From: Actinomadura sp. KC345
Lineage (GTDB): Bacteria > Actinomycetota > Actinomycetes > Streptosporangiales > Streptosporangiaceae
Assembly (NCBI RefSeq): GCF_004348515.1
Contig: NZ_SMKH01000001.1
Coordinates: 1-64,000, forward strand
Reading direction: 5' to 3'
Length of the DNA: 64,000 bases
Below are positions 40,955-43,849 of the stretch, one piece after another. The notes beneath the pieces are model-generated. The model did not search any database and was not told where the DNA came from. It saw nothing but the letters and a program-made list of their open reading frames with translations. How positions within the stretch are numbered: the stretch's first letter is position 1; every line of letters starts with the position of its first letter. The position numbers were made by a program, and so were the translations under genes.

Positions 40955-41239
40955 ATGGGTACTCGTCTGTGTGTTCTTTTAGGGGCCGGTGTCGCGCTGG
41001 CCGCGTTGCTAGGGCTGGCCGTGTACTGGAGCCAGGTCGGATTCCGGCTAGCGGACGCCTTGGGATGGGCCGGCGCCGCGGTGGGTACCGCCGGTCTGCT
41101 GCTGGCCGTTTACGGAATGGCCGGCAGTGGCCAGGGCGGCTCGGCGGAGAGGCCCGCGAACGTGCGGATGAAGGCCCGGACGTCCGGCAAGGGCCGGACA
41201 TACCAGGCCGGCGGCGACCAGAAGATCAATGACCGATGA
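40955..41239 (+). CDS. small two-TM protein with C-terminal YQAGGDQ motif
   Basis: 94 residues. Two membrane helices (about 4-24 and 34-56) are joined by a short loop with Arg/Asp. The C-terminal tail, ~35 residues, is predicted on the cytoplasmic side and carries MKARTSGKGRTYQAGGDQ (from about residue 71). Part of this motif recurs at the N-terminus of the next protein. No Shine-Dalgarno is visible, and GACAAT sits at leaderless -10 spacing. The stop overlaps the next start by 4 bases. I do not recognise a described family. It looks like an adaptor or partner for the two VWA-like proteins that follow. Confidence 0.7.
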   Translation: MGTRLCVLLGAGVALAALLGLAVYWSQVGFRLADALGWAGAAVGTAGLLLAVYGMAGSGQGGSAERPANVRMKARTSGKGRTYQAGGDQKINDR

Positions 41240-42440
41240 GCGGTTCACGAACGCCGGAACCCGGTGTCGGAATTCCGTCGGTGCAGCTGAAGGCGAAGTC
41301 CTCCGGTAATAGCCGGCTCTATCAATCGTTCGGCGACATGCGCGTGTTCAACGTCGTCCCTCCCGGTGCCCGCACCCCGGTGCTCGTCGTGCTCGTGCTG
41401 GTCTTGCTGGTCGGTGGCGGATGGGTGCTGGTGACGTGGGTGCGGCCGTTGTTCGCGCCGGCGTACAAGACGCAGTTCCTCATCGACGGGACCATGACCT
41501 CGGGTGGACCGGAGGCGGTCACCGCGTCCCTTCGCAAGGCGGTCGGCAACGCCGCCGCCGACGACGCGCTGGCATTGCGGACCTTCGGGGGCGAGTGCGG
41601 TTTCGGCGACAACACCGAGCAGCTGGTGGGGTTCGGCACCGGCAACCGCGAAGAGGTCGCCCGGGCCACCGGTGAGGTGAGCTGGGGCGGGAAGCCGACG
41701 CTGGTGCGCGGGGTCGTCGAAGCGGTGGACGACTTCTCCAAGCGGCTGGCCTGGGGCGCCGACCAGCACGGGACGCGCGTCAACCGCCTCATCGTGGTCA
41801 CGCGGCACGGGACCGACGCGTGCGAGGACGACCCCGCGGTCGTCCAGCGTGAGATCCACGACCGTCTCGAGTCGGCCGGCCTGAAAGTGGAGTTCAAGGT
41901 GATCGGCTACCAGGTTCCCGAGGGCGAGCGTGAACGGCTCAGGCAGATCTCGGCGGGCATCCGCGGTGACGCTCCGATCTTCGCGTCCGACCCGTCCCGG
42001 CTGGCCGCCGCCATGGAGTGGTTCACCAACACCCAGCCCGTCCTGCGGGAGGCGAGGAAGGTCACCGACGTGCTGAACCTCGCGGTGGGCCGTGTGGAGG
42101 ACGCCCGGACCGCCATTGACGAGGGCGGTTCGACTCCGCCGGCGACCAGCTCGACCGGGCCGAATCGGCGGACGTCGGCGCGACGCTGGAGTCGCTGGAG
42201 AACCGGGCGAGAACGCCGCAGGCGCGGGACGTCCACCTCAAGGCGCGGCGGCTGTCCTCGCAGCAGCGGCGCGTCGTCCAGTCCGGGCGGGGTCTGCTGG
42301 AGGCCACCCAGGACGGCGGATCCCGCGACGCCGAGTTCACCGCCTACCGCGCGGCGGTCGTGACCTACAACCAGCAGGCTGAAGGGTTGAAGAAGGCTCT
42401 GGACGCGCTGCGGGCCACCGGACCGGGGGGACGGTCATGA
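41236..42440 (+). CDS. membrane-anchored VWA-like protein (one frameshift)
   Basis: About 401 residues if one missing base near 42127-42132 is restored. Without it the frame runs into Arg/Ser-rich nonsense and stops at 42363. In the other frame, DSAGDQLDRAESADVGATLE continues as a helical, coiled-coil-like tail and stops at 42438, overlapping the next ATG by 4 bases as the first pair do. N-terminal residues ~17-37 carry LKAKSSGNSRLYQSFGDM, resembling the tail of the previous protein. A membrane helix lies at ~47-68. A VWA-like domain follows (KTQFLIDGTMTSGGPEAV, LALRTFGGECGFGDN, IVVTRHGTDACEDDP). The first metal position is degenerate (DGTMT). Confidence 0.65.
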
Positions 42441-43849
42441 CGTCCTCGCGCCGGCGCCGGCTGCTGTGGGGGCTGGCCGTGACCGGGGTTCTGGCGGTCG
42501 CGGCGGGCGTGGCCGTCTACGTCGTCAAGTCGATCCCGCAGTACCGGACGACTTTCCTGGTCGATGCATCCGTCACCGAGCAGGCCGACTTCCAGGCGGT
42601 CCGCCGTTCGGTCGTCTCGGCCGCGCAGAACGCGGGCGAGCGTGACGCCATGGCCCTGCGCCGGTTCGGCGGCGAGTGCGGGAACGCGGACAACACCCGG
42701 TCTCTGGTGGGCAGCGGAATCGGCAACGGCGAGGAGATCGGCGCGGCGGCCCGGGCGCTCACGGCACGGGGCAAGGCCACGCTGGGCAGCGGAGTGCTGG
42801 CGGCGATCGACGACTTCGCCGGCCGGCACCCGTTCCGCGGCAGGGAGGGCAACCGCATCATCGTGGTCACCGGGCACGGCACCGACGCCTGCGACGGCGA
42901 CCCCGCCGAGCTGGGCCGCCGCATCAGGAGCCGGGCCGGGGAGGTCGGTGTGGAGATCGACATGCGGTTCGTCGGCTACAAGGTCCCCGCCGCGGGCCGC
43001 TCGGTTCTCGGTCGGCTCGCCACGACGGCCGGGCAGCCCGCACCGGACTTCCCCCAGGACGGCACCGAACTCGCCGCGACACTGAAGAGGTACACCGTCC
43101 CCACCTCCACCGACCCCAAGCAGATCACCCTCCCGGCCAAGCCCGTCACCACGCGGCCATGCACGTTGGAGCACAGGCAGCGCGGGTGGAAGAAGACCTC
43201 GCGGCCATCGAGGTTCGAGCTCCCCGAACAGGTGAGGCTCCCGGCCGGAGCGGCCGTGTACGAGGTCCCGCACCACCCGTCCGGTTCGGGTGCCTCCCGC
43301 TTCGTCGCGGAAGCCGGAAAGGCGACCTGCTCCAGCGGACCACCCGGCGAGCCGAGCGAAGGGCACTACATCGGCGCCAGAGTCCAGAAGCTCTACCCGG
43401 AAGGGCCCGAATTCAACGACCCCGCCCAGATGAGCTGGGTCGGCCTCACCGTTGAGGACCCCGACGCCTCCTGCTATCTGTTCCCGAAGAACCCTGCCCC
43501 CCAGCCCGGTTACGTCGCGGCGAACTGCGAGACGGTCGCGGCCGCGATGTGGCTCGCCGACCGCGAGGAGGTGACCACCGGGAACCCGCGGTACAAGGCC
43601 GCCCTGTCGCGGGAACCGGGCATCGGGAACTGGCAGCGCGTGCCCGGGTCGATCGAGGTCGCCCTCGCCGTGGACCGGCCCGGCCCCGAGAACCCGGCGA
43701 TCCTGTGCGTCCAGCCGAAGAGTAGGGCCTCCCTGTGCACCGCGGCCCTGACCTTCCACTTCGTCGAAACGATGAAGGAGGGACTACCGAAGGACAGGCT
43801 GGAGGCCGGCGTGCAGCAGATCGAACGCTTCATGTCGAAGAGCTCCTGA
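42437..43849 (+). CDS. membrane-anchored VWA-like protein with Cys-rich C-terminal domain
   Basis: 470 residues. One N-terminal membrane helix (~9-31) precedes a VWA-like domain (~38-220). In it, TTFLVDASVTEQADF contains an intact DxSxT metal motif, LRRFGGECGNADNTRSLVG matches the preceding paralogue, and IIVVTGHGTDACDGDP supplies the later Asp. The remaining ~240 residues form a separate domain with about six cysteines (PCTLEH, ATCSSG, ASCYLF, ANCETV, ILCVQP, SLCTAA), consistent with disulfides outside the cell. No known enzyme motif. Translationally coupled to the preceding gene. A strong hairpin follows the stop. Confidence 0.75.
   Translation: MTSSRRRRLLWGLAVTGVLAVAAGVAVYVVKSIPQYRTTFLVDASVTEQADFQAVRRSVVSAAQNAGERDAMALRRFGGECGNADNTRSLVGSGIGNGEEIGAAARALTARGKATLGSGVLAAIDDFAGRHPFRGREGNRIIVVTGHGTDACDGDPAELGRRIRSRAGEVGVEIDMRFVGYKVPAAGRSVLGRLATTAGQPAPDFPQDGTELAATLKRYTVPTSTDPKQITLPAKPVTTRPCTLEHRQRGWKKTSRPSRFELPEQVRLPAGAAVYEVPHHPSGSGASRFVAEAGKATCSSGPPGEPSEGHYIGARVQKLYPEGPEFNDPAQMSWVGLTVEDPDASCYLFPKNPAPQPGYVAANCETVAAAMWLADREEVTTGNPRYKAALSREPGIGNWQRVPGSIEVALAVDRPGPENPAILCVQPKSRASLCTAALTFHFVETMKEGLPKDRLEAGVQQIERFMSKSS

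What the first reader, a model, noticed from the sequence alone, without database searches (positions are those of the whole stretch)
40955..43849. Three-gene membrane VWA cassette with a shared cytoplasmic motif
Three genes joined by ATGA overlaps encode a 94-residue two-TM protein and two single-TM proteins with paralogous VWA-like domains. The tail of the first (SGKGRTYQAGGDQ) and the N-terminus of the second (SSGNSRLYQSFGD) share a motif of about 20 residues. With the helices predicted, both copies would face the cytoplasm while both VWA domains face outside. The third protein has an intact DxSxT metal motif and a Cys-rich outer domain; the second has a degenerate metal site. I know of no described system with this layout.
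Basis: partly seen in the sequence, partly recalled or inferred. Interest (0 to 1): 0.75.

Follow-up and report, generated by a model that had tools for sequence, protein, structure and literature searches.

The report
Membrane VWA receptor with amyloid-type motif
This soil bacterium carries a small operon that looks like a cell-surface sensor wired to a membrane effector by a short self-recognising tail, the prion-like wiring used by immune receptors of fungi and filamentous bacteria, but attached to a membrane receptor instead of a cytoplasmic one.

Summary
The trio recurs in Actinomadura livida, A. formosensis and a Streptomyces. Of 21 VWA1 loci, all have a VWA2-like neighbour, and 15 have an adjacent small protein whose C-terminal motif is of the same class as the N-terminal motif of VWA1. 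Three motif classes occur and both partners carry the same one. One class matches a published bacterial amyloid signalling sequence (BASS3, RHIM-like) shown to form amyloid. The window's class (YQAGxD) occurs elsewhere at the C-terminus of the same two-TM protein and the N-terminus of the adjacent NB-ARC/TPR NLR. So the motif is best read as BASS-type receptor/effector wiring, with the NLR replaced by a membrane receptor carrying extracytoplasmic VWA domains (VWA fold: Z 21 to a solved VWA). Proposed mechanism: ectodomain sensing clusters VWA1 tails, which nucleate a beta-arch polymer that templates the effector tail; the effector then damages the membrane. Amyloid formation by the window motif and the death outcome are inferred. 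New variant of a known kind; the founding BASS paper could not be read, so priority is uncertain.

The parts
40955..41239 (+). Gene 1: 94-aa two-TM protein with C-terminal cytoplasmic motif; proposed effector (family also paired with or fused to NB-ARC NLRs)
41159..41227 (+). Motif copy 1, NVRMKARTSGKGRTYQAGGDQKI (residues 69-91 of gene 1)
41236..42440 (+). VWA1: N-terminal motif, TM, VWA domain, helical C-terminal domain; the reading frame is broken at about 42120-42132 (ORF as read: 41236-42363)
41278..41346 (+). Motif copy 2, SVQLKAKSSGNSRLYQSFGDMRV (residues 15-37 of VWA1)
41380..41436 (+). TM helix of VWA1 (residues 49-67)
41458..42051 (+). VWA-fold domain of VWA1, proposed extracytoplasmic
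   Evidence: model of the intact A. livida relative
42437..43849 (+). VWA2: TM, VWA domain, variable C-terminal outer domain
42470..42526 (+). TM helix of VWA2 (residues 12-30)
42536..43099 (+). VWA-fold domain of VWA2
43193..43840 (+). C-terminal domain of VWA2 (residues 253-468), related to the C-terminal part of receptor-like Ser/Thr kinases

Best explanation
A membrane-receptor version of the bacterial amyloid signalosome. Shown by sequence: VWA1 has an N-terminal motif, a TM helix and a VWA-fold domain; VWA2 is its paralogous neighbour with a variable C-terminal domain; gene 1 (in relatives, one of several other small proteins) carries a class-matched motif at its C-terminus. Inferred: the VWA1/VWA2 pair senses a signal at the envelope; this clusters or frees the VWA1 tails in the cytoplasm; the tails form a beta-arch (RHIM/BASS-like) seed; the seed templates the tail of the effector; the polymerised two-TM effector permeabilises the inner membrane, giving arrest or cell death. 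VWA1 stands where an NLR stands in Bell/NLR pairs. The layout resembles Drosophila PGRP-LC, a surface receptor with a cytoplasmic RHIM-like motif.
For: Trio conserved in L046, L047, L076. Class-matched effector beside VWA1 in 15 of 21 loci, three motif classes, five kinds of effector. Cognate pairs score above non-cognate, 0 of 20,000 permutations as high; the VWA1 tree needs at least 4 class changes and the G class arises at least twice, both times with a G-class partner. R-class tails on VWA1 (L077, L084, L050, L048) and on effectors match the experimentally amyloid BASS3 peptide of Frankia; Pfam RHIM is the best, sub-threshold, hit of one effector. Gene 1 relatives pair with or are fused to NB-ARC/TPR NLRs bearing the same YQAGRDQ motif at their N-terminus. 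2TM-motif-TM-VWA fusions in L048, L049, L050, L119 fix motif and VWA on opposite membrane faces. VWA fold Z 21.2.
Against: No experiment on the Y-class motif; it does not align to the BASS3 peptide. Six of 21 loci show no matched effector next door (the L049 TIR protein is 1.7 kb away and its receptor tail fits weakly); L121's pair is weak (166 of 5000 shuffles as high); L088 has lost the motif. In some loci the two-TM module is fused to the receptor, so it may be an anchor or adaptor and not the killer. The predicted beta hairpin in the VWA1 tail has low confidence. The window copy of VWA1 is frame-broken.
Confidence: 0.66

Rival explanations
1. The motif is an ordinary docking element (small beta-hairpin pairing) that holds the two-TM protein and VWA1 in one standing membrane complex, without polymerisation or cell death; for example an envelope-stress or cell-wall sensor.
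For: Class matching only shows that the tails recognise each other. VWA2's C-terminal domain is shared with receptor-like Ser/Thr kinases, i.e. ordinary sensors.
Against: The R class matches an experimentally amyloid peptide, and the same motif classes sit on NLR/effector pairs.
Confidence: 0.22
2. The two-TM protein is a membrane adaptor that recruits or anchors the receptor, and the true effector is encoded elsewhere (Bell-like, TIR or NLR-linked proteins with the same motif).
For: 2TM is fused to VWA1 in four loci, three of them with a separate motif-bearing helical protein next to the pair; 2TM is fused to an NB-ARC protein in L127.
Against: In L125 and L126 the two-TM protein is the only small partner of the NLR, and in the window trio no other candidate lies nearby.
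Confidence: 0.3
3. The window copy is a decaying pseudogene cassette: VWA1 is truncated after its VWA domain and the system is off in this strain.
For: Frame break at about 42120-42132 against intact relatives.
Against: Gene 1, the rest of VWA1 and VWA2 are intact and well conserved; the draft has 600 contigs, so an assembly error is possible.
Confidence: 0.4
4. The motif similarity is chance or a fresh DNA duplication.
For: A short motif found by eye in one locus.
Against: 0 of 5000 shuffles; class matching across loci; 0 of 20,000 permutations; no DNA repeat.
Confidence: 0.01

Closest known systems
Bell/NLR pairs with bacterial amyloid signalling sequences, BASS 1-10 (Dyrka et al. 2020 J Mol Biol 432:6005, not held; described in PMC7889193 and PMC8086366)
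   Same: Adjacent or overlapping genes; motif at the effector's C-terminus and the receptor's N-terminus; several motif classes; filamentous actinobacteria; relatives of this system carry BASS3-like motifs.
   Different: The receptor is a membrane protein with an extracytoplasmic VWA pair, no NTPase; the effector in the window is a two-TM protein. BASS numbers of the Y and G classes unknown.
Drosophila PGRP-LC / Imd (RHIM-like amyloid motifs; mentioned in PMC7885112)
   Same: Works like it: surface receptor with outer sensor domain and inner amyloid-type motif.
   Different: No homology known; different sensor domain and output.
MoxR-vWA ternary conflict systems (PMC7159879, PMC8195603)
   Same: VWA domain, multicellular actinobacteria, variable C-terminal domains.
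   Different: No MoxR ATPase; VWA is outside the membrane; coupling by short motif instead of effector-associated domains.
Actinobacterial VWA protein 4fx5 and integrin-type A domains
   Same: VWA fold.
   Different: Metal site only partly kept; no inner motif reported in what I read.

Membership tests
BASS-type amyloid signalosome | Matching motif at C-terminus of a small effector and N-terminus of the adjacent receptor | tested here: met
   Window pair 0 of 5000 shuffles; 15 of 21 loci class-matched
BASS-type amyloid signalosome | Receptor is an NLR (NB-ARC/NACHT) protein | tested here: not met
   Receptor is TM + VWA fold, no NTPase; NLRs with the same motif exist elsewhere
BASS-type amyloid signalosome | Motif belongs to a described BASS family | tested here: inconclusive
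   R class in relatives matches the BASS3 peptide; the window's Y class does not match that peptide, and the BASS1-10 profiles were not available
BASS-type amyloid signalosome | Motif forms amyloid | not testable with these tools
   Published for BASS3 only
BASS-type amyloid signalosome | Effector has a Bell domain | not tested
   No Bell profile at hand; gene 1 is a two-TM protein, relatives have small helical proteins
VWA domain | VWA (Rossmann-like) fold | tested here: met
   VWA1 model Z 21.2, 2.2 A over 174 residues to 4fx5; VWA2 by Foldseek; Pfam only sub-threshold
VWA domain | Complete metal site (MIDAS) | tested here: inconclusive
   VWA2 keeps D43, S45, T115; VWA1 keeps D86 and T157 only
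MoxR-vWA ternary system | MoxR AAA ATPase gene beside the vWA gene | tested here: not met
   Gene neighbours in the window and relatives read by translation; none seen

The most novel reading that the evidence does not exclude
Filamentous actinobacteria use transmembrane receptors with paired extracytoplasmic VWA domains to trigger cytoplasmic prion-like (BASS-type) signalling to interchangeable membrane-active effectors: a bacterial counterpart of PGRP-LC-type surface immune receptors, with motifs and effectors shared with NLR systems.
Probability: 0.55. Interest if true: 0.85.

Novelty: new variant of a known kind. Interest (0 to 1): 0.7.

Why it matters
Bacterial amyloid signalling has been described with cytoplasmic NLR receptors whose triggers are unknown. 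A surface receptor tied to the same motifs would show that the prion-like relay is a general wire between sensors and effectors, would make the upstream signal reachable from outside the cell, and would give a bacterial parallel to animal surface receptors with RHIM-like tails. Three motif classes that match between both partners make signalling specificity directly testable.

Tried and rejected
Pfam and NCBIfam on the window proteins gave nothing useful; PADLOC nothing above noise. A literature search for the motif letters found no paper. Dyrka et al. 2020 is not held, so the Y and G classes could not be matched to BASS numbers. Rejected: chance similarity, recent DNA duplication, MoxR-vWA system (no MoxR gene seen). 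The neighbour survey of the two-TM family was read only for plus-strand genes in the sampled loci and is illustrative, not a count. The C-terminal domain of VWA2 was modelled with low confidence, so its fold stays open. A search of ORFs around L075, L085, L077 and L084 found no matched effector.

Full report
What is there. The three ORFs are at the stated places. Gene 1 and VWA1 overlap by ATGA at 41236-41239. The second gene is not intact in this assembly: its ORF ends at 42363 with a tail unlike its relatives, while another frame, from 42120 on, continues the VWA1 family (E 4e-29; again) to a stop at 42438-42440. Intact copies exist in relatives. Whether the break is real or an assembly error cannot be told here; the genome is a draft of 600 contigs.

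The shared motif is real. Residues 69-91 of gene 1 and 15-37 of VWA1 align without gaps, score 61 against 22.3 +/- 4.5 for 5000 shuffles, none as high. The DNA under the two copies is 58% identical, with 12 of 23 third positions equal, so this is similarity kept at the protein level and not a fresh duplication.

Recurrence. VWA1 was found in 8 of 65 genomes of the genus, in 12 of 347 of the order (one of them a weak match), in 3 of 395 of an even sample of the class (one weak), and by name in Actinomadura, Streptomyces and Lentzea. It is rare and patchy. Reading 21 loci shows a VWA2-like gene beside VWA1 in all of them, directly downstream in all but Streptomyces sp. I6 (L077), where VWA2-like genes lie upstream on the other strand; in L076 the downstream gene was only partly read. 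The window trio has the same order in A. livida (L046), A. formosensis (L047) and Streptomyces sp. MUM 2J (L076), with the same 4-base overlap of gene 1 and VWA1.

Three motif classes. On VWA1 N-tails and on neighbouring small proteins the motif occurs as Y (SGxxRVYQAGxD), R (GVxVGDxxxQxNxF) or G (ERSVxIGGDNxGxxxTGD). Fifteen loci have a neighbour of the same class as VWA1: four with the two-TM protein (Y), two with a helical protein 'EGWQDARRA' (Y), four with a helical protein like 'MDPVTIIVAAL' (R), four with another two-TM protein (G), and one with a further helical protein (G). Names such as BellA/B/C in my scripts are working labels; homology to the published Bell domain was not tested. 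The 13 pairs scored give a block-diagonal matrix; none of 20,000 permutations reached the cognate sum, also with near-copies dropped. On the VWA1 tree the labels need at least four changes, and G arises at least twice, each time with a G-class partner. Relatedness inflates the permutation result, so the independent evidence is these few switches plus the use of unrelated effectors within one class.

Link to known biology. The R class aligns to VDLRDAKGVQVGDGNVQINRF of Frankia, a BASS3 peptide with experimental amyloid features (PMC8086366): four receptor tails score 35-57 and three effector tails 50-63, against means of 16-20 for shuffles; other R-class tails score less (two effector tails 31-32) or do not stand out. 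The window's Y class does not match that peptide. It is tied to the same kind by position: in L125 and L126 a protein of the gene 1 family with C-terminal YQAGRDQ lies directly before an NB-ARC/TPR protein with N-terminal QAGRDQ, and in L127 two-TM, motif and NB-ARC are one protein. L165 shows a two-TM/P-loop pair with the G class. A review describes this layout for BASS: effector C-terminus, NLR N-terminus, sometimes TIR effectors (PMC7889193). So VWA1 takes the NLR's place. The gene 1 family itself is common: 102 of 347 genomes of the order have a profile match at E 1e-5, some of them to the motif alone.

Topology and structure. In L048, L049, L050 and L119 the two-TM part, motif, TM and VWA form one ORF. 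Motif and VWA are then separated by one TM and lie on opposite faces; with the positive-inside rule (general knowledge) the motif is inside. The VWA1 model (A. livida) has mean pLDDT 79 and a VWA fold, Z 21.2, 2.2 A over 174 residues to 4fx5; VWA2's VWA part matches solved A domains. Each VWA keeps two or more invariant Cys, in keeping with an outer location. The C-terminal part of VWA2 differs between loci; in the window it is related to the C-terminal part of Ser/Thr kinases, which suggests a sensing role.

Mechanism. Shown: partner genes, class-matched motifs, receptor fold. Inferred: clustering of VWA1 tails on ectodomain binding, templated beta-arch polymerisation of the effector tail, membrane damage. 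The main rival is a non-amyloid docking motif in a standing sensor complex; next, that the two-TM protein is an adaptor. Neither can be excluded by sequence.

Novelty. The motif kind is known. No text I could search describes a VWA membrane receptor with it, but the founding paper was not held, so priority is uncertain. I rate it a new variant of a known kind.

Noticed in passing
window 42120-42132: Frame break inside VWA1 relative to intact relatives; real or assembly error unknown.
   Followed up: partly
L056 8470-9774 and L055 8837-10876: The C-terminal domain of VWA2 recurs as the C-terminal part of Ser/Thr kinases, one of them in the window's own genome (G000:C432).
   Followed up: partly
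L125 4440-10064: Two tandem copies of a two-TM protein plus NB-ARC/TPR NLR pair, all with the YQAGRDQ-like motif.
   Followed up: partly
L127 6164-7792: One protein joins two-TM, motif and NB-ARC, parallel to the two-TM-motif-TM-VWA fusions.
   Followed up: yes
L049 9399-10514: TIR protein with a BASS3-like C-terminal motif next to a VWA2-type gene and 1.7 kb from a VWA1 gene.
   Followed up: partly
L088 3105-4253 and L084 7929-9062: Two Lentzea VWA1 relatives: one keeps a BASS3-like tail, the other has lost it.
   Followed up: no
L128 6919-7383, L129 5871-6338: Small proteins that carry two motif classes in series (GGDNSGxxSTGD, then YQAGRDQ) with no NLR next to them; perhaps links between classes.
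   Followed up: no
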